Of a stretch of 64,000 bases of DNA, positions 6,637 to 59,146 are shown piece by piece. The stretch lies in assembly GCF_016907235.1 (NCBI RefSeq), contig NZ_JAFBBO010000001.1, forward strand, positions 1,984,001-2,048,000, in the 5' to 3' direction. Position numbers and translations under genes: made by a program. Source of the DNA: Oerskovia jenensis. GTDB lineage: Bacteria; Actinomycetota; Actinomycetes; Actinomycetales; Cellulomonadaceae. The first letter of the stretch is position 1; each line of letters starts with the position of its first letter. The notes beneath the pieces were generated by a model. The model was not told where the DNA came from. It did not search any database and worked only from the letters and a program-made list of their open reading frames with translations.

Positions 6637-8817
6637 TCAGCCTGCCGTGCGGCGGATGCTGCGCCGCCACCGACGTTCGAACACCACGTCCTCGCCGTCG
6701 CGCGCCACGACCTCGTCGTCGGTGTGGAAGAACTCGGCGTCGCACGTGATCTCCGAGCGCGTCACGATGCTCGCGTCCCACGCGAGGTCGGCCGGCGTCG
6801 CCCCGGGCCGACGCAGCCGCACGCTCCAGTCGGAGCGCGTGCGCGCGCTCAGCGGGTCGCGCCCGATCCAGTAGCGCTCGAGCGCGTCCTCGGTGAACTC
6901 GAGGCCGTCGGGGTAGATGCGCGTCCCGCCGTACCTCGGGTCGACCTCCAGGAGCCACTCGTCGGCCGCGACGTCGCGCACGACGCGCCGCTCGGGCCGC
7001 TGGTCCGCGGCCTCCGGGTAGACGACACCGAGCGGGGGCGCCTGCTCGGGCTCCTCGAAGGTGACGACCGGGTGCCCGCCGGGAGCTGCGCCGTCGTGCA
7101 CGGGAAGCTCGAGCGAGCTGCCCGCGGGCGCGACCGCGAGCGCCGCACCGCCCGGCTGCGGCCACACCCACGGCCAGTAGGCCGACGAGAGCGCGAGCCG
7201 GAGCCGGTGCCCCGGCGCGAGCGCGTACCCCACGCCGCTGAGCTCGAACGTCACGTCGTGCGTCGTGCCGGGTTCCCAGGGGACCACGCGGTCGCGTCCC
7301 TCGCGGGCCGACAGGTTGACCACGCCACGGGTCACGAGCGTCGAGGAGCCGTCAGGACCCACGTCGCACAGCCGCGCCACGACCTGGCCCTTGTCGCCCG
7401 CGCACGACAGGCGCAGGCGGACCCGTGCTCGCCCCAGGATCTCGAGCCGCTGGGTGAGCGGGGCCGAGTCGAAGCACACGGACCGCCCGTCCTCCTCGCG
7501 CTGGTCGGGCGGCAGGTCCGCGTCGTTGCCGAACGGGAAGAAGCGGCCCGCGTCGATCCCGGTGTGCTGGGGAGAGGCCACGAGGCACGACGGCGGCACG
7601 TCCGCGGGGGCGGCCGGCCCACCGCTCGCTGGGCCCGGGTGGGCGGGCAGGTGCGTGACGAGCGGGGCGGTCGTGCGCAGCACGGGGGCGACCGCTGCGT
7701 CGTCGGTGTCGGTGTCGTCCGTTCCACCCGGCGCTCCCGCGAGCGGGAGGACCGTCGGCCGGACGTGCGGAGACGGCCACCGCTCCTCCCCGACCCAGCG
7801 GCCGGGCAGCTCGTCGTAGACCGTGGCGGGCGGCACGGACTCGGTGACCCAGGCGCGCAGCGCCGGTTCGTCGAGCGCGCCCGTGTCCTCGTCCTTGAGG
7901 AAGTGGTCCCACCAGCGCAGGGTCTCCTGCAGGAAGCCGATCGAGGGGCCGGGCGGCAGGCCCCGGTCGGGGTACTGGTGCGACCAGGGACCGACGATGC
8001 CCCGGACCGGACCACCCAGAGCACGGTCGCCGTCGGCCGCCTGGTCCCCCGCGGCGACGAGCCGCAGGACCGTGTCGCGGTAGGGGTCGTTCCACCCGCC
8101 GACCGCGAGCACCGCGGCCTTGATCGCCGAGTAGTCCTCGATCACGCTGCCGTGGCGCCAGTAGTCGTCGCGCGTCTGGTGGTCGAGCCAGGTGTGGACG
8201 AACGGCTCGGTGTGCTCGAGGCGGTCGAGCCACTGCTCCTTCCACCGGTCGCCCACGACGGCCGGGTCCGGGGGCCGGGAGCAGAACGCGAGCATGGTCG
8301 CGGCCCACGCGTGCATGTCGACGGCGAGGACCGATCCGCCCGTGTAGTGCACGTCGTTGTCGTACCGGTCGTCGGTCGAGCAGACCGTGACGATCGCGCG
8401 CAGCGCCTCGGGCGCGAGGGCCGCGACCTGCAGGGCGTTGAACCCGCCCCACGAGATGCCGAACATCCCGACCCTGCCGCTGCACCACTCCTGCGCCGCG
8501 AGCCACTCGACGACCGCGACACCGTCGGCGAGCTCGGTCGGCGAGTACTCGTCGTCCTGGTGGCCGTCCGAGTTCCCGCTGCCGCGGAGGTCGACGCGCA
8601 CCGACGCGTACCCGTGGCCCGCGTAGTACGGGTGGCGCTGCGCGTCGCGCGGGGCGGTCCAGTCGGACAGCCGGTAGGGCAGGTACTCCAGGATCGCGGG
8701 GACCGGCGCGGGGTCGACGGGTCGCCACACGCGCGCGGCGAGGCGCGTGCCGTCGGCGAGGGGTATCCAGTGGTCCTCGACCGTGGTCTCGAACGGGAGC
8801 TCGGTCACGTACCGCAT
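6637..8817 (-). CDS. CocE/NonD-family serine hydrolase
   Basis: A 726-residue alpha/beta hydrolase with a C-terminal jelly-roll domain, the architecture of cocaine esterase, X-Pro dipeptidyl peptidase and related acylases. The nucleophile serine is in GMFGISWGGFN (around residue 120), the aspartate in VGGWNDPYRD and the histidine in GPWSHQYPD. No signal peptide is visible, so it is probably cytoplasmic. The ATG at 8817 has GGAGGA six bases upstream. A peptide transporter lies 88 bases upstream on the same strand. Together they suggest uptake and cleavage of small peptides or amides, although the substrate is not evident from sequence. Confidence 0.85.
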   Translation of the reverse strand: MRYVTELPFETTVEDHWIPLADGTRLAARVWRPVDPAPVPAILEYLPYRLSDWTAPRDAQRHPYYAGHGYASVRVDLRGSGNSDGHQDDEYSPTELADGVAVVEWLAAQEWCSGRVGMFGISWGGFNALQVAALAPEALRAIVTVCSTDDRYDNDVHYTGGSVLAVDMHAWAATMLAFCSRPPDPAVVGDRWKEQWLDRLEHTEPFVHTWLDHQTRDDYWRHGSVIEDYSAIKAAVLAVGGWNDPYRDTVLRLVAAGDQAADGDRALGGPVRGIVGPWSHQYPDRGLPPGPSIGFLQETLRWWDHFLKDEDTGALDEPALRAWVTESVPPATVYDELPGRWVGEERWPSPHVRPTVLPLAGAPGGTDDTDTDDAAVAPVLRTTAPLVTHLPAHPGPASGGPAAPADVPPSCLVASPQHTGIDAGRFFPFGNDADLPPDQREEDGRSVCFDSAPLTQRLEILGRARVRLRLSCAGDKGQVVARLCDVGPDGSSTLVTRGVVNLSAREGRDRVVPWEPGTTHDVTFELSGVGYALAPGHRLRLALSSAYWPWVWPQPGGAALAVAPAGSSLELPVHDGAAPGGHPVVTFEEPEQAPPLGVVYPEAADQRPERRVVRDVAADEWLLEVDPRYGGTRIYPDGLEFTEDALERYWIGRDPLSARTRSDWSVRLRRPGATPADLAWDASIVTRSEITCDAEFFHTDDEVVARDGEDVVFERRWRRSIRRTAG

Positions 8818-8905
8818 GGTCGTTCCTCCGGTGCTGGGTGGTGCGGGTGGTGCGATCGGTCGGGTGGTGGTCGTCCGGCGACGCCGGTGGCGCGGGTCGC
8901 GCCCC

Positions 8906-10399
8906 TCAGTGGACGGGATGCATGGTCCGCTTCATCCAGGGCGAGAGGATCAGGACGACGACCGCGACGAGCACGGCCACGGCCCCGTTGAGCGTGAAGT
9001 AGAGGCCGTCGGGGATCTCGCCGTAGAACCGGACGGTCTGCGCCTGGATACCGTTCGCGAGCGCGATCGACAGGAACCACACGGCCATCGACTGGCTCGA
9101 GAAGGCCGCGGGGGCGAGCTTGGTCGTCGCGGACAGGCCCGTCGTCTGGAGCAGCACGTCACCGAGGCCCAGCAGGAGGAGCGAGGCCAGGAGCCACCAC
9201 ACGGCGATCTTCCAGTCGCCGCTCTGCCCCGTCACCGCGGGCACGAGGATCAGGTAGGACAGCCCGCCGAGGAGCGCGCCGATCGCGATCTTCTTGGACG
9301 CGTGCGGCTGCCGGGGGCCGAGCCAGGTCCACAGGGCCGCGACCACGGGCGCGACGAGCACCTCGACGCCGCCGAGGAACGAGCTGAACCAGGCGGCCGG
9401 TGCCTCCCACCCGAAGATCGTGCGCTCGACGTGCTGGTCGGCCAGCAGGATCAGGACGCTGTACGCCTGGAAGAGCACGAAGTTGAACGCGACCGACGCG
9501 AACCACAGCACGAGGAACGGTCGCAGCCGACCGCGCTCCTCACCCGTGACCCGAGGGCTGCGGAACATGACCGTGAAGTAGGCGATGGGCGCGGCCATCG
9601 CGATCACCGTCAGCACGTCGACGACGCCCGCGATGCTGAGCCGCCCCACGAGCGCGAGCCCGACGGCGAGGAGCACCACCCCGGCCGCGACCCCTCCCAG
9701 GATCCACAGGGTCCGGCGCATCACGGCCGGCGGCAGCGGCGCCTCGGGGCCGCGCCCGTGCCCGGGGACGTGCTTGCGGCCCACGACGTACTGGACCACT
9801 CCCGCGGTCATGCCGATCGCGGCGGCCGAGAACCCCCAGTGCCACCCCACGTCGGCGCCGAGCCAGCCCGTCACGAGGGGACCGAAGAACGCCCCGACGT
9901 TGATGCCCATGTAGTAGAGCGCGAACCCGGCGTCGCGGCGCTCGTCGGTGGTCGAGTAGAGCTTGCCCACGAGGGTCGACACGTTGGGCTTGAGCAGGCC
10001 CGTGCCCAGGCTGATGAGGACCAGCCCGAGCCAGGTCGAGAGCTCGGCGGGGACCGCCATGGTGTAGTGCCCGCACGCGATGAGGATCCCGCCCCACAGG
10101 ACCGCGCGGTACGAGCCCAGGACCCGGTCAGCGATCCACCCGCCGCCGACCGAGACCAGGTAGACCATGGTCCCGTAGCCGGCCGCGATCGAGGCCGCGG
10201 GGCCCGCCGCCATCCCGAGCCCGTCGTCGGCGACCGACGCGGTGAAGAACAGGACGAGGATCGCCTGCATCCCGAGGAAGGAGAACCGCTCCCAGACCTC
10301 GAGGCCGAACAGGGTCGACAGACCTCGGGGGTGCCCGAAGAAGGCCCGGTCGTCCGGGTCTGCCGCGGGGTCTGCCGGTCGTGCGTCCTCGGTCGTCAA
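8906..10399 (-). CDS. POT/PTR2-family proton-coupled oligopeptide transporter
   Basis: About 497 residues, twelve or more membrane segments, proton-driven di/tripeptide uptake. The family signature is seen early as GLEVWERFSFLGMQAIL (the ExxER-type stretch), with LGTGLLKPNVSTLVG and the helix-5 motif FALYYMGINVGAFFGPL. A GGAGGG sits just before two adjacent TTG codons (10402 and 10399); I take 10399 for the better spacing. A TTG at 10453 in frame is the alternative. It precedes the CocE-type hydrolase on the same strand, so the two probably form a peptide import and hydrolysis unit. Confidence 0.87.
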   Translation of the reverse strand: MTTEDARPADPAADPDDRAFFGHPRGLSTLFGLEVWERFSFLGMQAILVLFFTASVADDGLGMAAGPAASIAAGYGTMVYLVSVGGGWIADRVLGSYRAVLWGGILIACGHYTMAVPAELSTWLGLVLISLGTGLLKPNVSTLVGKLYSTTDERRDAGFALYYMGINVGAFFGPLVTGWLGADVGWHWGFSAAAIGMTAGVVQYVVGRKHVPGHGRGPEAPLPPAVMRRTLWILGGVAAGVVLLAVGLALVGRLSIAGVVDVLTVIAMAAPIAYFTVMFRSPRVTGEERGRLRPFLVLWFASVAFNFVLFQAYSVLILLADQHVERTIFGWEAPAAWFSSFLGGVEVLVAPVVAALWTWLGPRQPHASKKIAIGALLGGLSYLILVPAVTGQSGDWKIAVWWLLASLLLLGLGDVLLQTTGLSATTKLAPAAFSSQSMAVWFLSIALANGIQAQTVRFYGEIPDGLYFTLNGAVAVLVAVVVLILSPWMKRTMHPVH

Positions 10400-10579
10400 C
10401 AACCCTCCAGCGATCGGTCGGCCCGTCGCAGGTCCGCGCAGGCATCCTTCCAACCTAAGGAGGATCGGGTCACGTGGCCACAGGGACGCCGGCCCGTGGA
10501 TGTCGAGCCCGAGGTCGGTCAGGCGACCTGGCCACGTCGCCGGACCAGCCCCGGGTTCGACACCGCCGGGTTCTCGGGG

Positions 10580-11185
10580 TCAGCGCGTCAGGTCCGCGAT
10601 CCGGGTCAGCAGGCCGTCCCGCACGGTCAGCCACTCGTCGGACAGGACCGAGAAGTAGGCGGTGTCCCCGCGCGAGCCGTCGGGCGCGACCCGGTGGCTG
10701 CGCAGCACCCCCTCGGGCACCGCACCGAGCCGCTGGATCGCGGCGATCGAGCGCGCGTTGCGCGCGTCGGCACGCAGCGCCACGCGCTCGACGTCGAGCA
10801 CCTCGAACGCGTGCCGCAGCAGCAGGTACTTGCACACCGGGTTGGTCACGCCGCCCCACCACGGCCGGTCGTAGAAGGTCGAGCCCAGCTCGACGCGCCG
10901 CTGCGCGGGCGACCACTCGTAGAGCGAGGTGCTGCCGCGGACGGACGTGGCGCCGTCGGGCCCCTCGCCGGGAGCAGCCGGCCCGACGACGGCCCACGCC
11001 AGGCGCCCCGGCGCCGCCACCGCCTCGCCCACGTAGGCGGACATCGCGGGCGTACCGCGCGGCGTGGGCGACGACATCCCCGCCCACAGGGCGTCGTCGA
11101 CGAACGCGCCGAGCGCCTGCGCGTGCTCCTCGGCGAGCGGCTCGAGCCGCAGCCCGAACCCTTCCAGGACGACGTCGTTCTCCAT
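10580..11185 (-). CDS. GNAT-family N-acetyltransferase (RimJ/RimL type)
   Basis: A 201-residue protein-type acetyltransferase. It shows the RimL-like opening LEGFGLRLEPLAEEHA, the central RVELGSTFYDRPWWGG loop, and DARNARSIAAIQRLGA, the acetyl-CoA-binding region of this subgroup. The ATG at 11185 is taken because the homologous region begins there; an upstream in-frame start (11251) adds unrelated residues. A clear paralog lies at 11571-12344 on the same strand, with a CsbD gene between them on the other strand. The substrate is unknown. Confidence 0.85.
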   Translation of the reverse strand: MENDVVLEGFGLRLEPLAEEHAQALGAFVDDALWAGMSSPTPRGTPAMSAYVGEAVAAPGRLAWAVVGPAAPGEGPDGATSVRGSTSLYEWSPAQRRVELGSTFYDRPWWGGVTNPVCKYLLLRHAFEVLDVERVALRADARNARSIAAIQRLGAVPEGVLRSHRVAPDGSRGDTAYFSVLSDEWLTVRDGLLTRIADLTR

Positions 11186-13868: not shown

Positions 13869-13910
13869 GGCACGTCCTCCGGTGGTCGTCGGAGTTCGCC
13901 CTGCCGGCCC

Positions 13911-14024
13911 CTCCGCGCTTGCCCCCCTCCAGGTAGAGAGGGACCTGGTCGTCACCCGGGGCACCCCACCGCGGAGGAGGGTTGCCGGCCAGCAAACCGG
14001 GGCTTTGCGCTGGCACTCATGACC
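13911..14024 (-). ncRNA. SAM-IV riboswitch
   Basis: Reading the minus strand, the leader begins GGTCATGAGTGCCAGCG, continues AAGCCCCGG, TTGCTGGCCGGCAACCC, then CGCGGTGGGGTGCCCC and GGGTGACGACCAGGTC, and closes with GGCAAGCGCGG. This matches, block for block, the conserved core and pseudoknot strands of the actinobacterial S-adenosylmethionine riboswitch class IV. It ends 42 bases before the start of the cysteine-desulfurase-like gene. SAM binding should lower expression of that gene. The expression platform is not obvious: no terminator is seen between riboswitch and start, so translational control is likely. Confidence 0.92.
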
Positions 14025-14998: not shown

Positions 14999-15073
14999 GC
15001 GCAGGAACCTACCCGACCACCCTGCGAGACGACCGTTCCATCTTGTGGGCACGGTGGCGTACGATCCGACGCA

Positions 15074-15161
15074 ACCATCCAGAGCGGCTGAGTGACTTGG
15101 CACGATGACGCCGCAGCAACCCCCCGGCAACGGGCGAGGGTGCTACCGCCACGACCGATGG
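15074..15161 (+). ncRNA. SAM-I (S-box) riboswitch
   Basis: The leader shows the S-box landmarks in order: CCATCCAGAGCGGCTGAG, TTGGCACGATGACGCC, CAGCAACCCCC, GGTGCTACCGCC and closing GATGG. CCATC (15074-15078) pairs with GATGG (15157-15161) as P1. The Shine-Dalgarno GGAGG (15160-15164) begins inside the 3' strand of P1, so ligand-stabilised P1 would cover the ribosome site and block translation of the rhodanese and, by coupling, metZ. No terminator hairpin follows, which fits translational rather than transcriptional control. Confidence 0.9.
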
Positions 15162-15170
15162 AGGATCACC

Positions 15171-54240: not shown

Positions 54241-56664
54241 CTAGCCCAGCGTCACGACGACCTTGACCTCGGAGCCCGCGGGCTGCACCGGGATCGGCTG
54301 CGTCGGGTCGAGCTCGACGCCGTCGAGCGTCACCGACCGCACACCCTTCGACACGTGGTCGGGGTTGCGCACCTCGATCTCGTAGACCGCGCCACGCCAC
54401 TCACGGCGCACCTCGAAGCCGTCCCAGTCCTTGGGGATCGACGGGTCGACGACCAGGCCGTCGAGGGCCAGGCGCACACCGAGGATGTACTTCGTCGCGG
54501 CCGTGTACATCCAGCCCGCCGTACCCGTGAGCCACGGGTTCTGCGCCTTGCCGAACCACTCGTGGTCGCGGCCGTACAGGAACTGCACGTAGGCGTAGGG
54601 CTCGGCCCCGCGGACCTCGATGTTGTCGTTCTGGTTGTACGGCAGGATCGCGTCGTAGAACTGCACGGCCTCGTCGCCGCGGCCCAGCATGGCCTCGGCG
54701 ATGATGGGCCACGCGTTCGGGTGCGAGAAGATCGCGGCGTTCTCCTTGATGCCCGGGTACACGCGCGTCACGAAGCCGACCGTGTCGTCGACCTTGGTGA
54801 ACGCCGGCCAGTTCAGGTGGTTGCCGTACTCCGAGCCCAGGAGCTCGCGCACCGAGTCCATCGACGCCTCGCCGCGCTCCTGCGTCGTGATGCCCGCGAT
54901 GACCGGCCAGGCCTGGTGCTCGAGGAAGATCTTGCCCTCGTCGTTGTCGTTCGAACCGATCTTCACGCCGTCGCGCGTGTAGCCACGGATCCACCAGGCG
55001 CCGTCCCAGAGCTGGGTGTCGGCGACCTTCGCGATGCGCGCGAGCTCGGCCTCGTACTTGGCGACGTCCTCGGTACGGCCCAGGGGACGAGCGATCTCCA
55101 GGAACGCCTGGATGGCCCACGCGTGCAGGAACGTGACCAGCGAGGTCTCGCCGCCGCCCAGGTTGAGGCAGTCGTTCCAGTCGGCGCGCAGGCCCAGGGC
55201 CACGCCGTTCTGGCCGATCTGCTTGCTCGAGAAGTCGAGCGCACGCGTGAGGTGCTCGTACACCGTGGCGGGGGTGCCCTCGGCGAACGGGATCTCCTCG
55301 TCGAGGAACTCCAGACGGCCCGTCTCCTTGACGTACTCCACGACCGACGGCACGAGCCACAGGTGGTCGTCCGAGCAGGTGTCCTCGAGCCCGTGGATGA
55401 GGTCCTTGGGGTCGGGGGTGGGGACGATCGTGGGCGACGGGACGTCGGGCAGCTTGGGTGCGTCCGGGTCGAACGCCTTGGGCTCGAACAGGTGCAGGCC
55501 GTAGCCCGCCTCCGTCTGGGCCCGGAGGAGCTCGACGATGCGCTGGTGCGTCTTGGTCGGGTTGGTGTGGATGACGCTCATGACGTCCTGGGCCGTGTCG
55601 CGGAAGCCCAGGCCGCTGCGTCCGCCGACCTCGACGAACGACGCGAAGCGCGACCACACGACGCAGGTCTCCGCCTGGAGCAGCGTCCACGAGTTGATCA
55701 TGGTGTTCATGCCCTCGTGGGGCGTGCGGATGCGCAGCTTGTCCTGCTTGGCCTTCCAGTACGCGGCCAGGCGGGCACGCTCGGCGTCGACGGTCGCGAC
55801 GTCCGCGTACTTGGCCTGCATCGCGCGGCCGGCCTCGGCGCGCGAGCCGTAGCCGAGCATGTAGACGAGGCGCTTGGTCTCACCCGGCTGCAGCGTGATC
55901 TTGTGCTGGAGCGAGCCGCAGTGGTTCTGCGTCGTCGCGCTCTCGTTCGAGCCGTGCCCGCGCTCGATCGCGATCGGGTTGGCCTCGGAGCGGTAGGGGC
56001 CGATGAAGTTGTCGCGCAGCGAGTCGTACGACGACGGCGCCTCGCTCGACGCGAAGTAGTGGAACGTCCACGGCTCGTAGTAGGCGTCGTACTCGATGAT
56101 GCCGTCCTCGTAGGACGACCCCGTCGAGTAGAGCGACATCTGCAGGTTCTGGTTGTCGATCGTGATCGTGTGGAAGGAGAACTCCACGTACGACCCGACC
56201 GTCAGCTCGCGGACCTCGTCGGTCGTGTTGGTCAGGCGCACGTCCCAGATCTCGACGTCGTCGTCCAGGGGGATGAAGATCGTCTGCTGGGCGTCGATGC
56301 CCTTGTACTGGGCCTCGAACGTCGAGTAGCTCAGGCCGTGGCGCGTCGTGTACGTCGCGCCGTCCTCGTGTCCATCAGCCGCGAGCGGCTTGCCCACCGG
56401 CTGCCACGACACCGACCAGAAGTCGCCGTCGGCCTCGTCGCGCAGGTACACGTAGTGCCCCGGGCGGTCGAGCGGGACGCCGTTCTGACGGAACCGCGAG
56501 ATGCGGCCGCTCTGCGCCGACTTGTAGTACGAGTAGCCGCCGCCGTTGTGCGAGAGCACGGTGCAGAAGTCCTTGGTGCCCAGGTAGTTCGTCCACGAGA
56601 CGGGGACGTCTGGGCGCTCGATGACGTACTCGTCACGAGCGGTGTCGAAGTGGCCGTAGCGCAT
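54241..56664 (-). CDS. GH94 glycoside phosphorylase, N,N'-diacetylchitobiose-phosphorylase-like
   Basis: An 807-residue inverting phosphorylase that should split a beta-1,4 disaccharide with phosphate to a sugar 1-phosphate. The catalytic acid aspartate lies in GLRADWNDCLNLGGGE. The opening WTNYLGTKDFCTVLSHNGGG, FRDTAQDVMSVIHTNP and DTCSDDHLW blocks match what I know of Vibrio N,N'-diacetylchitobiose phosphorylase, and differ from the Cellulomonas cellobiose phosphorylase, which has other sequences at these sites. So GlcNAc-1-P is the expected product. No signal peptide: a cytosolic enzyme acting on imported disaccharide. It follows the fusion gene, 90 bases apart, likely one operon. Confidence 0.85.
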   Translation of the reverse strand: MRYGHFDTARDEYVIERPDVPVSWTNYLGTKDFCTVLSHNGGGYSYYKSAQSGRISRFRQNGVPLDRPGHYVYLRDEADGDFWSVSWQPVGKPLAADGHEDGATYTTRHGLSYSTFEAQYKGIDAQQTIFIPLDDDVEIWDVRLTNTTDEVRELTVGSYVEFSFHTITIDNQNLQMSLYSTGSSYEDGIIEYDAYYEPWTFHYFASSEAPSSYDSLRDNFIGPYRSEANPIAIERGHGSNESATTQNHCGSLQHKITLQPGETKRLVYMLGYGSRAEAGRAMQAKYADVATVDAERARLAAYWKAKQDKLRIRTPHEGMNTMINSWTLLQAETCVVWSRFASFVEVGGRSGLGFRDTAQDVMSVIHTNPTKTHQRIVELLRAQTEAGYGLHLFEPKAFDPDAPKLPDVPSPTIVPTPDPKDLIHGLEDTCSDDHLWLVPSVVEYVKETGRLEFLDEEIPFAEGTPATVYEHLTRALDFSSKQIGQNGVALGLRADWNDCLNLGGGETSLVTFLHAWAIQAFLEIARPLGRTEDVAKYEAELARIAKVADTQLWDGAWWIRGYTRDGVKIGSNDNDEGKIFLEHQAWPVIAGITTQERGEASMDSVRELLGSEYGNHLNWPAFTKVDDTVGFVTRVYPGIKENAAIFSHPNAWPIIAEAMLGRGDEAVQFYDAILPYNQNDNIEVRGAEPYAYVQFLYGRDHEWFGKAQNPWLTGTAGWMYTAATKYILGVRLALDGLVVDPSIPKDWDGFEVRREWRGAVYEIEVRNPDHVSKGVRSVTLDGVELDPTQPIPVQPAGSEVKVVVTLG

Positions 56665-56754
56665 CGTCGGGTCGGTTCCTGTCGGTGAGAGGTGCGGGTG
56701 GGTGGGGTAGGTGTGCCGAGCCTCCGGGGTTCGAGGACCCCGGGGGACGGAGAC

Positions 56755-58977
56755 TCAGACGCCTGCGGTCACGAAGCCCTTGAGCCAGTCCAGCAGCTCG
56801 CCGGCCTTCTCGGGCGAGTCCGCCTCGACGAACATGCGCAGCACGGGCTCGGTCCCGGAGAACCGCAGGAGTGCCCAGTTGTCGTTCTCGAGGACGATCT
56901 TGGTGCCGTCGAGGTGGGAGATGCTCACGACCGGGTAGGGGCCGATGTGCGTGAGCGGGTCCGCCTCGAGCCGGCGCGGCACGGCGACCCGCATCTCCGG
57001 CGTGGAGTCCACGCCGGCCTCGAGCGTGTAGAGGCGCCCGGTGATCTCGTAGATCATCTCGCGCAGCTCGGAGATCTTCTTGCCGGTGCGGGCCAGCATC
57101 TCCACGACCAGGGCGCACGCGAAGATGCCGTCCTTGCCGAGGATCCAGCCTCGGACCGTCAGACCGCCCGAGGACTCGCCACCGAGCACGGCACCGATCT
57201 CCTCCATGCCGGCCGTGACGTGCTTGAAGCCCACCTTGACCTCACGCGACTCCTCACCGAAGTGCGCGGCGAGGCGGTCCAGCAGGTGGGTCGTGGCCAG
57301 GTTGCGCACGACGCCGCCCTTCTCGCCGCGGAACTCGTGCAGGTACCAGTACAGGAGGAGCAGGAGGTCGTTGGTCGAGATGTACTCGCCGGTCTCGTCG
57401 ACGATCCCGATGCGGTCGGAGTCGCCGTCGGTCGCCATGCCCAGGTCGTAGCGTCCGCCGCCCTGCTGGATCATCGAGATCAGCGTGGACAGGCGCTGCA
57501 GGTCCGGGGCGGGCGCGATGCCGCCGAACAGCGGGTTGTGCGACGCGTGGATGAACTCCGAACGCACGCGCATGTCGTTGAGGATCGTGCCGAGCGTGAG
57601 CTGGCTCGTGCCGTACATGGGGTCGACGATCACCCGCAGGTCCGAGCCGCGGACGGCGTCGACGTCGACGATCTTCTCGATCGCGTCGACGTAGGGCTCG
57701 GTGAGGACCTTGTCCACGACGAGCCCTGCCTTGCGGGCCACCGCGAGGTCGAGCGTGATGACGTCGTCGACGCTGAGCGCGTTGGCCTCGTCCTGGTAGC
57801 GGTCGGTCTCGTCGTCGAGGGGCAACGAGCCGTCCTGGCGGAACACCTTCATGCCGTTCCACTCGGGCGGGTTGTGGCTCGAGGTGACGATGATGCCGTA
57901 CGCGGCGCCGAGGTACGGGGCGGCGAACGTCACGAGCGGCGTGGGGACGTCGTCGGGCAGGAGGGTGACCGGGATGTTGTTGCCCGCGAAGACCTCGGCC
58001 GCGGCGATGGCCGACTCGCGCGAGAGGAAGCGGCGGTCCCCGCCGATGACGACGCCCAGGTCGTCGATGCCCTTGCGGACCGTCTCGTTCGCGATCGCCT
58101 GGCACAGCCGACGCACGTTGGCGAGCGTGTAGCCCTCGCCGATGATGGCCCGCCACCCACCGGTGCCGAACACGATCTTGGTGTCGGTGTTCTTCTTGGG
58201 CATGAACAGGCGCTTGAGGAGGATGTCGGCGGCCTCCTGCAGCTCCTCGGCCGTGTTGATGCCGCGGACCTCGTCGGTGTCGTAGATGCGGTACGACGAG
58301 ATGCTCTTGTGCTTGGCGATGACACGGCGGGCGAGCTCGGTGAGCCGGTGCTCGCCCTCGGCCAGCATGACCTCGAGCTCGGTGAAGAGCAGACCGGGGG
58401 CCGCGACGTAGGCACCCACGTTGACCTCGACGGGCTCCCCGGCGGTGTGCGCGTCGGCGGGCCGGTCCGACTCCTCGAGGATCGCGGTGATCTCGCCGTC
58501 GTGGCGGACGATGCGGCCGTAGGTCGGCAGGCCCTCGGTCACGACGGCCGCGAGCAACGACAGGTCGGCGCCCTTGAGCGTGTGGCGGGTCAGGAGCCCG
58601 AGCAGGGACTCGGAGCGCAGGAGGGGGGTGTCGGCGTAGGCCACCAGGACCTCGCTCGCGGGGCGACCGAGCGCCTCGACCGCGGCCCGGGCAGCCAGCA
58701 CGGCGCCGCCCGTGCCGGGCAGCTCCCGCTGCTCGACGTACTGGAACCCTTCGCCCAGCAGTCCCCGCACCGCCGTGTCACCGGGGGCAACGACGACCAC
58801 GATGCGGTCGTCGGCGATGATCTTGCGGACGTTCGCGACGGCGAGCTGGACCACGGTCGCGTCACCGAGCGGGCGCGTGATGAGCTCGCGCGAGGCGTCG
58901 TCGTGGCCTGCGGCGAGGACCACCGCCGCTCGGTCGTTCGTGGTGGCGGAGACCTGGGCGGCCTGTGGCAGGGTCAT
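56755..58977 (-). CDS. Fusion: GlmU-like nucleotidyltransferase domain and phosphohexomutase
   Basis: A 740-residue two-domain enzyme. Residues about 12-245 resemble the GlmU pyrophosphorylase domain: VVLAAG, LPGTGGAVLAA, LVAYADTPLL, PTYGRIVR and VNVGAYV. The loop after LAAG reads HDDASRELITRPL, lacking the normal GTRM...PK residues. Residues about 260-735 are a complete phosphohexomutase: phosphoserine loop VTSSHNPPEWNG, metal loop ATDGDSDRIG, sugar loop GGESSGG and phosphate loop RFSGTEPVLR. The ATG at 58977 follows GAGGA. First gene of the operon with the GH94 enzyme; it could convert GlcNAc-1-P to the 6-phosphate and perhaps to a nucleotide sugar. Confidence 0.88.
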   Translation of the reverse strand: MTLPQAAQVSATTNDRAAVVLAAGHDDASRELITRPLGDATVVQLAVANVRKIIADDRIVVVVAPGDTAVRGLLGEGFQYVEQRELPGTGGAVLAARAAVEALGRPASEVLVAYADTPLLRSESLLGLLTRHTLKGADLSLLAAVVTEGLPTYGRIVRHDGEITAILEESDRPADAHTAGEPVEVNVGAYVAAPGLLFTELEVMLAEGEHRLTELARRVIAKHKSISSYRIYDTDEVRGINTAEELQEAADILLKRLFMPKKNTDTKIVFGTGGWRAIIGEGYTLANVRRLCQAIANETVRKGIDDLGVVIGGDRRFLSRESAIAAAEVFAGNNIPVTLLPDDVPTPLVTFAAPYLGAAYGIIVTSSHNPPEWNGMKVFRQDGSLPLDDETDRYQDEANALSVDDVITLDLAVARKAGLVVDKVLTEPYVDAIEKIVDVDAVRGSDLRVIVDPMYGTSQLTLGTILNDMRVRSEFIHASHNPLFGGIAPAPDLQRLSTLISMIQQGGGRYDLGMATDGDSDRIGIVDETGEYISTNDLLLLLYWYLHEFRGEKGGVVRNLATTHLLDRLAAHFGEESREVKVGFKHVTAGMEEIGAVLGGESSGGLTVRGWILGKDGIFACALVVEMLARTGKKISELREMIYEITGRLYTLEAGVDSTPEMRVAVPRRLEADPLTHIGPYPVVSISHLDGTKIVLENDNWALLRFSGTEPVLRMFVEADSPEKAGELLDWLKGFVTAGV

Positions 58978-59117
58978 GACGTCCTCACTGCTCGGTGATG
59001 CGTCGTGCGCGGCCCGTGCAGACCACGCTCGGTAGGGCACCGGAGAGCCGACGGAAAAAGCACGACTCCTTCCAAATCCCTCGCACGAGGGACCGCGGAT
59101 GCCCGGTACCACCACCG

Positions 59118-59146
59118 ATCATAGACGCGCGCAGGGCCGTCCCGAA
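59118..59146 (-). promoter_or_regulatory. Promoter of the fusion-GH94 operon
   Basis: Minus strand TTCGGG (59146-59141), 17 bases, TATGAT (59123-59118). The -10 is a consensus match, the -35 weak. The transcript would have a leader of about 135 bases including a ccctc/gaggg hairpin. No LacI-type operator is obvious. Confidence 0.55.

What the first reader, a model, noticed from the sequence alone, without database searches (positions are those of the whole stretch)
54241..58977. Phosphorolytic chitobiose route coupled to a nucleotidyltransferase-mutase fusion
The GH94 enzyme looks like a diacetylchitobiose phosphorylase and would release GlcNAc-1-P. The upstream fusion has a phosphohexomutase that could make GlcNAc-6-P and a GlmU-like domain that uses sugar 1-phosphates. 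Both act on the exact product of the phosphorylase, a compact chitin salvage unit that saves one ATP. The domain order (GlmU-like then mutase) is unusual.
Basis: partly seen in the sequence, partly recalled or inferred. Interest (0 to 1): 0.75.

Follow-up and report, generated by a model that had tools for sequence, protein, structure and literature searches.

The report
Chitobiose salvage with nucleotidyltransferase-mutase fusion
A soil actinobacterium carries a two-gene unit that seems to break the chitin sugar chitobiose with phosphate and pass the product to a mutase fused to a GlmU-like domain; that domain kept its uridine and metal residues but lost its catalytic loop, so it looks more like a built-in sensor than a second working enzyme.

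The parts
54241..56664 (-). GH94 N,N'-diacetylchitobiose phosphorylase, 807 aa
   Evidence: phmmer against PDB: 1v7v Vibrio chitobiose phosphorylase 1071.5 bits over 1-807, next 8bou 521 bits, chains named cellobiose phosphorylase 449-502 bits; Pfam GH94 domains
56665..56754 (-). 90-bp gap between fusion gene and phosphorylase gene
   Evidence: in 42 of 44 family genomes that hold both genes they lie on one contig and strand with a gap of -1 to 130 bp
56755..58977 (-). GlmU-like / phosphohexomutase fusion, 740 aa
   Evidence: AlphaFold2 mean pLDDT 77.0
58207..58932 (-). GlmU-uridyltransferase-like domain, fusion residues 16-257
58879..58908 (-). replacement loop (residues 24-33, GHDDASRELI) where GlmU has GxGTRM; the catalytic Lys falls in a three-residue deletion just after
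   Evidence: GlmU G16, R18 and K25 kept in 0 of 30 sequences; 16 of 16 true GlmU proteins keep the signature
58729..58731 (-). Gln83, aligned with E. coli GlmU Gln76 (uracil contact)
   Evidence: 30 of 30 sequences
58630..58632 (-). Asp116, aligned with E. coli GlmU Asp105 (ribose contact; metal ligand by recall)
   Evidence: 30 of 30 sequences
58255..58257 (-). Asn241, aligned with E. coli GlmU Asn227 (metal ligand by recall)
   Evidence: 30 of 30 sequences
56770..58182 (-). phosphohexomutase domain, fusion residues 266-736
57868..57885 (-). phosphoserine loop TSSHNP (365-370)
57412..57429 (-). metal loop DGDSDR (517-522)
57163..57183 (-). sugar-binding loop GGESSGG (599-605), same letters in the Subdoligranulum mutase
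56845..56859 (-). phosphate-binding loop SGTEP (707-711)
58978..59122 (-). conserved, strongly folding non-coding 5' leader
   Evidence: found in 7 of 7 genomes held of the genus; RNA fold z -3.47, 0 of 200 shuffles as low; no two-sided covariation

Best explanation
Imported chitobiose is split with phosphate to GlcNAc and GlcNAc-1-P by the GH94 enzyme; the mutase half of the fusion turns GlcNAc-1-P into GlcNAc-6-P for NagA. The GlmU-like half is descended from a GlmU uridyltransferase, no longer transfers nucleotides, and binds a uridine nucleotide with a metal ion, most likely UDP-GlcNAc. It thereby sets the mutase activity, so that chitin carbon is sent to catabolism when cell-wall precursor is plentiful and held as GlcNAc-1-P for the cell's true GlmU when it is scarce. 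Shown here: gene structure, orthology, linkage, loss of the catalytic signature, retention of uridine and metal residues. Inferred: substrates, loss of activity, the ligand, and any regulation including its direction.
For: Phosphorylase orthology. The fusion is coupled to the phosphorylase: of 221 family genomes 44 hold both, 1 only the phosphorylase, 1 only the fusion (77% complete, short contig), 175 neither, Fisher p 3.7e-44 (the genomes are related, so this p overstates independence); 42 of 44 adjacent. In 9 of 9 further fusion loci fetched from three other families the phosphorylase is next. GlmU fold. Signature lost in 30 of 30; residues matching G14, Q76, G81, D105 and N227 kept in 30 of 30, T199 in 29, T82, Y103 and N169 in 25. 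In one genus (L118, L120-L123) the segment holding E154 is deleted and N169 is Asp, yet the uridine and metal residues stay: what is kept everywhere is the nucleotide end. The domain is under purifying selection: dN/dS 0.13-0.25 from the window to four Oerskovia species, and its identity in other genera (55.0-72.1%) is like that of true GlmU domains (60.5-71.0%), so it is not simply decaying. A GlmU with an intact signature is elsewhere in the genome. Uracil contacts of GlmU by Gln83, Gly88 and Ala14 and ribose contact by Asp114 (M. tuberculosis numbering) were read in passages of PMC9105790. GMPPA, a catalytically inactive pyrophosphorylase that binds GDP-mannose and acts as feedback inhibitor, is the precedent (PMC11228364, passages).
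Against: No binding or activity was measured. The new loop has its own conserved Arg (window Arg30; 29 of 30 by my reading of the alignments), which might do the work of GlmU Arg18. The genus that lost the sugar-contacting residues cannot bind UDP-GlcNAc in the GlmU way, so the ligand may differ or the domain may be structural there. Within Oerskovia dN/dS of this domain is about six to nine times that of the mutase domain (0.015-0.03). One genome (G625) has the phosphorylase with no fusion above the threshold, so the fusion is not strictly needed. The linker, residues 259-282, is predicted with low confidence, so domain contacts are unknown.
Confidence: 0.5

Rival explanations
1. The GlmU-like domain is still a uridyltransferase with a variant loop, so the fusion is a true branch-point enzyme: GlcNAc-1-P goes either to UDP-GlcNAc or to GlcNAc-6-P.
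For: Metal, uracil and, in most members, GlcNAc residues are kept. A conserved Arg sits in the new loop (29 of 30 by reading). In other actinobacteria the related stand-alone mutase lies in one stretch with a separate nucleotidyltransferase gene in 9 of 11 loci fetched; the one read in full (L115) has an intact GLGTRM loop, so the pairing of the two activities recurs.
Against: Signature Gly, Arg and Lys are absent in 30 of 30, with a three-residue deletion, while 16 of 16 true GlmU proteins of family genomes checked keep the signature; 5 of the 9 sequences from further families have also lost the GlcNAc-contacting segment.
Confidence: 0.2
2. The GlmU-like domain is a passive part: it holds the oligomer together, or captures GlcNAc-1-P from the phosphorylase and hands it to the mutase.
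For: It evolves faster than the mutase domain; one genus lost the sugar segment and still keeps the domain; gene adjacency fits channelling.
Against: What is kept in 30 of 30 is the uridine and metal end, not the sugar end, which neither a scaffold nor a GlcNAc-1-P carrier would need.
Confidence: 0.2
3. The GH94 enzyme prefers cellobiose or another disaccharide, and the mutase is a glucose- or mannose-phosphate mutase.
For: GH94 includes cellobiose phosphorylases and this genome has only one other GH94 match, weak (30.8 bits, cut-off 27). The nearest solved mutases are named phosphomannomutase/phosphoglucomutase.
Against: 1071.5 bits to the Vibrio chitobiose phosphorylase against 449-502 to chains named cellobiose phosphorylase. 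The genome has GH18 matches above cut-off at six places and a NagA-like ORF. The mutase half is 44.4% identical to the mutase beside a phosphorylase in Subdoligranulum but 28-30% to the three other own-genome mutases listed; stand-alone relatives lie with GHMP kinases (9 of 11) and a GH112 1,3-beta-galactosyl-N-acetylhexosamine phosphorylase (3 of 11), again an N-acetylhexosamine setting.
Confidence: 0.06

Closest known systems
Vibrio (GlcNAc)2 operon: VC0612 (GlcNAc)2 phosphorylase with VC0611 GlcNAc-1-phosphate mutase
   Same: Phosphorylase and mutase in one operon; same two steps (PMC5209532 passages; PMC12282291 passages for VC0612 and the operon)
   Different: No vibrio sequence was fetched or compared; that VC0611 lacks a GlmU-like domain is recalled. 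The vibrio operon holds (GlcNAc)2 transporter genes; among eight neighbouring ORFs scanned here none gave a sugar-transporter match, one being an ABC ATPase 4 kb away.
Chitobiose phosphorylase of Vibrio proteolyticus (PDB 1v7v)
   Same: Aligned over the full length at 1071.5 bits; R-D, W-N-D and K-E-N stretches identical; species and activity from the table in PMC8950772 (passages)
   Different: Actinobacterial host; activity unmeasured
GlmU N-terminal uridyltransferase domain
   Different: No GxGTRM...K signature (0 of 30); no acetyltransferase domain; mutase attached instead
GMPPA, the inactive GDP-mannose-binding paralogue of GMPPB
   Same: A sugar-nucleotidyltransferase fold without catalysis that keeps nucleotide-sugar binding and regulates (PMC11228364 passages)
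   Different: Here the domain is covalently joined to a mutase and descends from GlmU; neither binding nor regulation is shown
Clusters of other Actinomycetota: stand-alone mutase + nucleotidyltransferase + GHMP kinase, some with GH112 phosphorylase
   Same: Related mutase (42.9-47.2% identity by tblastn) in one stretch with a nucleotidyltransferase (9 of 11) and a GH112 phosphorylase (3 of 11)
   Different: Separate genes; the nucleotidyltransferase read in full has an intact loop; chitobiose phosphorylase not found in 11 of 11 fetched stretches

Membership tests
GH94 chitobiose phosphorylase | GH94 supersandwich and catalytic domains, full-length match to a characterised chitobiose phosphorylase far above other GH94 | tested here: met
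GH94 chitobiose phosphorylase | Catalytic acid region (W-N-D) and conserved subsite -1 stretches | tested here: met
   R-D, W-N-D, K-E-N identical to 1v7v, TGT[A/S]GW with Ala for Ser; roles of the conserved GH94 residues from passages of PMC5309861; that Val631 (window Val635) makes room for the N-acetyl group is recalled
GH94 chitobiose phosphorylase | Phosphorolysis of chitobiose to alpha-GlcNAc-1-P | not testable with these tools
   needs assay
GlmU uridyltransferase | GlmU fold | tested here: met
GlmU uridyltransferase | GxGTRM...K nucleotidyl-transfer signature | tested here: not met
   Gly, Arg and Lys kept in 0 of 30; control 16 of 16 GlmU
GlmU uridyltransferase | Uracil and metal residues (E. 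coli Q76, G81, D105, N227) | tested here: met
   30 of 30
GlmU uridyltransferase | C-terminal left-handed beta-helix acetyltransferase | tested here: not met
   mutase instead
alpha-D-phosphohexomutase | Four domains with Ser, metal, sugar and phosphate loops | tested here: met
GlcNAc-1-P mutase | Preference for GlcNAc-1-P | not testable with these tools
   only guilt by association
Mannose-1-phosphate guanylyltransferase/phosphomannomutase fusions (recalled) | Same gross order, nucleotidyltransferase then mutase, with an active nucleotidyltransferase | not tested
   known to me from memory only; one paper search aimed at it was listed and no paper of it was opened

The most novel reading that the evidence does not exclude
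A dead GlmU domain has been recruited as a covalent UDP-GlcNAc (or uridine-nucleotide) sensor of a sugar-phosphate mutase, giving a direct allosteric link between cell-wall precursor level and chitin breakdown. To my knowledge a pseudo-uridyltransferase controlling a mutase has not been described; the listed titles and abstract openings of the paper searches (capped lists, open-licence papers only) show none.
Probability: 0.4. Interest if true: 0.7.

Novelty: new variant of a known kind. Interest (0 to 1): 0.5.

Why it matters
GlcNAc-1-P is the branch point between making cell wall (via GlmU) and burning chitin sugar. A domain that kept the nucleotide end of GlmU's pocket but lost its catalytic signature, fused to the enzyme of the other branch and inherited with the phosphorylase, offers a testable case of an enzyme fold turned into a metabolite sensor, with a natural series of further loss (a genus without the sugar segment).

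Tried and rejected
Cellobiose phosphorylase as identity: rejected on bit scores. GTG start at 59115: not favoured, because an indel between the window and its relatives falls in the extra stretch. The idea that the GlmU-like domain is a rotting remnant: not favoured, because its identity between genera is like that of true GlmU and dN/dS is well under 1. A hairpin change in the leader that I first noted as compensatory (note) lies in the loop; the count of structure pairs found 0 pairs changed on both sides in 7 sequences, so I withdraw it. Rfam gave nothing for the leader (best 15.9 bits against a gathering score of 34). A GlmU paper search by E. coli residue numbers listed none; one by M. 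tuberculosis numbers worked. A match in G038 that seemed to span both halves was fetched (L052); its frame shows a mutase and no nucleotidyltransferase domain that I could recognise by eye, so it was dropped. Alignment A1 had one row on the wrong strand and was replaced by A2; P0004 is a wrong-strand reading and was not used. L028 and L033 have interrupted frames and were left out of the protein alignments. L117 also has a split mutase frame and was counted only by tblastn. Of the 16 stand-alone mutase loci and 18 fusion loci that I read in the order sample, 11 and 9 were fetched.

Full report
Setting. The window is a 64-kb piece (G000:C1:1984001-2048000) of a 4.45-Mb high-GC chromosome. The six genomes listed as the same genus have fusion contigs of the same lengths as named Oerskovia records where both were seen (for example G002:C79 and O. 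rustica, 160143 bases), so I call it Oerskovia; the fusion is 95-97% identical to those of five named Oerskovia species.

The two genes. GH94 at 54241-56664 (-) and the fusion at 56755-58977 (-) are separated by 90 bp. By phmmer against PDB sequences the GH94 protein scores 1071.5 bits with Vibrio chitobiose phosphorylase 1v7v over its whole length, 521 with 8bou (named N,N'-diacetylchitobiose phosphorylase) and 449-502 with chains named cellobiose phosphorylase. The R-D, W-N-D and K-E-N stretches are identical to 1v7v, and TGTAGW stands for TGTSGW; passages of PMC5309861 name the conserved subsite -1 residues of GH94. The fusion carries PGM_PMM I-IV (residues 268-729) and a nucleotidyltransferase domain. 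It reaches no NCBIfam cut-off: the best are archaeal GlmM at 264.6 bits (cut-off 439) and, for the first half, GlmU PRK14355 at 96.9 bits (cut-off 718); the GH94 protein has no NCBIfam match at E 0.01.

Linkage. A scan of one genome per species (genome contigs) with the fusion alignment returned 21 loci, titled Oerskovia, Cellulosimicrobium, Sediminihabitans, Luteimicrobium, Sanguibacter, Cellulomonas, Xylanimicrobium, Micrococcales bacterium KH10, Actinomyces minihominis, Paraoerskovia and two Promicromonosporaceae bins; the phosphorylase follows directly in 19 of 21. The two patterns used lie in the GlmU-like domain and the linker, so that scan could find only fusions. In 221 genomes of the family, 45 have the phosphorylase (E <= 1e-200) and 45 the fusion (E <= 1e-100); 44 have both, G625 only the phosphorylase, and G623 (77% complete, fusion on a 3368-base contig) only the fusion. 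42 of the 44 have them on one contig and strand with a gap of -1 to 130 bp; in G001 and G622 they are on different contigs. In a sample of 396 genomes of the phylum only the window's own has the phosphorylase at that threshold; 77 of 396 match the fusion at E <= 1e-60, but in every listed row other than the window's own the match begins at query residue 226 or later, that is, essentially in the mutase part. In 396 genomes of the order, 34 match at E <= 1e-60; by match range and frame length I read 18 as fusions and 16 as stand-alone mutases. Of these, 9 of 9 fetched fusions have the phosphorylase next and 0 of 11 fetched stand-alone mutases have it in the fetched stretch (tblastn E <= 1e-8).

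What the stand-alone relatives do. On a Subdoligranulum plasmid record a phosphorylase (54.5% identical) is followed directly by a 470-aa stand-alone mutase (44.4% identical to the mutase half), then by ORFs that I read by eye as a sensor kinase, an ABC transporter and a response regulator. In vibrios the pair is VC0612 and VC0611 (PMC5209532, passages; the same passages report that Photobacterium galatheae lacks both and still uses chitin). In the 11 fetched actinobacterial stand-alone loci, 9 hold a nucleotidyltransferase gene and a GHMP kinase gene in the same stretch and 3 a GH112 1,3-beta-galactosyl-N-acetylhexosamine phosphorylase, counting L115, which supplied the queries; L113 and L114 show the mutase alone. 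The one nucleotidyltransferase read in full (L115) has an intact GLGTRM loop. So these mutases tend to sit in an N-acetylhexosamine setting and are repeatedly found with a nucleotidyltransferase; in the chitobiose lineage the partner is fused and comes from GlmU.

The catalytic signature is gone. Against E. coli GlmU (fetched) and the window genome's own GlmU, 21 fusion sequences (window, L009 and 19 of the 21 loci) keep G14, Q76, G81, T82, Y103, D105, N169, T199 and N227 in 21 of 21, G140 in 19 and E154 in 15 (Asp in 4); G16 is Asp or Asn in 21 of 21, R18 is kept in none, and K25 falls in a three-residue deletion in all. With nine sequences from further families added, G16, R18 and K25 are kept in 0 of 30, and G14, Q76, G81, D105 and N227 in 30 of 30. 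True GlmU proteins of 16 family genomes that carry the fusion keep LAAGxGTRM...K in 16 of 16. If the gap is moved, the residue that would face the Lys varies (reading). The new loop is itself conserved: S29 in all, D26 and R30 in 90% or more of 20 aligned sequences, and the Arg in 29 of 30 by my reading. Eight of ten GlmU ligand positions outside the loop are invariant, against 58 invariant of 257 residues (hypergeometric 1.4e-4; the ten positions were chosen from recall and are not independent).

A second loss. In L118 and L120-L123 (one genus by the listing; L119 is of another genus of that family and keeps the pocket) the segment holding E154 is deleted, N169 is Asp, T82 is Pro and Y103 is Ser, but Q76, G81, D105 and N227 remain. 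Uracil contacts by the residues matching Q76 and G81, and ribose contact by the match of D105 (and of K25, which is lost here), were read in PMC9105790 passages; the metal role of D105 and N227 and the catalytic roles of R18 and K25 are recalled. The part kept in all 30 is therefore the uridine and metal end of the pocket.

Selection. Nei-Gojobori dN/dS from the window to four Oerskovia species is 0.13-0.25 for the GlmU-like domain and 0.015-0.03 for the mutase; to five sequences of other genera 0.34-0.51 and 0.16-0.25, where dS may be unreliable. Identity to the window protein in other genera is 55.0-72.1% for the GlmU-like domain and 79.7-92.0% for the mutase; true GlmU domains of 16 family genomes are 60.5-71.0% identical to the own GlmU (the two sets are not the same genomes). 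The domain is thus constrained about as much as a working GlmU domain, but less than its own mutase.

Pathway in the genome. GH18 matches above the Pfam cut-off lie at six places, five of them above 215 bits. A NagA-like ORF scores 102.4 and 100.2 bits in two pieces, neither reaching the cut-off of 225.65; its frame is open in L051. Eight neighbouring ORFs scanned gave endonuclease/exonuclease, short-chain dehydrogenase, phosphoribosyltransferase, TetR, DUF4190 (two, one with a septum-formation match), ABC ATPase, and in one case no match; how chitobiose enters was not worked out.

Reading. Phosphorolysis then mutase is well founded and already known in kind. The pattern of loss and retention fits a uridine-nucleotide-binding regulatory domain, in the manner of GMPPA (PMC11228364 passages). 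I put about 0.9 on the phosphorylase identity, 0.8 on the mutase acting on GlcNAc-1-P, 0.7 on the domain being non-catalytic, and 0.4-0.5 on it being a nucleotide sensor; these are judgements.

Limits. All function is from sequence and predicted structure. Paper searches cover open-licence PubMed Central only and show capped lists; no listed title or abstract opening named this fusion. The vibrio mutase sequence was not compared.

Noticed in passing
window 58978-59122 (-): Non-coding 5' leader of the fusion gene, present in 7 of 7 genomes held of the genus, folds with z -3.47; no two-sided covariation in 7 sequences and no Rfam match. A stretch with the same GTGGTACCGGGC start is seen in Sediminihabitans L018.
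   Followed up: partly
upstream of the fusion in L018, L022, L024, L028, L034 and others; window about 59057-59077 (-): A recurrent motif like TTTGnAAGGA followed in several loci by CTAA or GTAA, in some near a TATGAT-like box (by eye); perhaps an operator of a ROK/NagC-type regulator (recalled resemblance).
   Followed up: no
window 13910-14024 (-) and 15072-15164 (+): SAM-IV (114.9 bits) and SAM (61.5 bits) riboswitches close together on opposite strands.
   Followed up: no
L041 (G625), 8291-10777 (-): A chitobiose phosphorylase without the fusion, just after genes that read as LepA and HemW, with a NagA-like ORF about 3 kb further on.
   Followed up: partly
[quoted passage not shown]
   Followed up: partly
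   Followed up: partly
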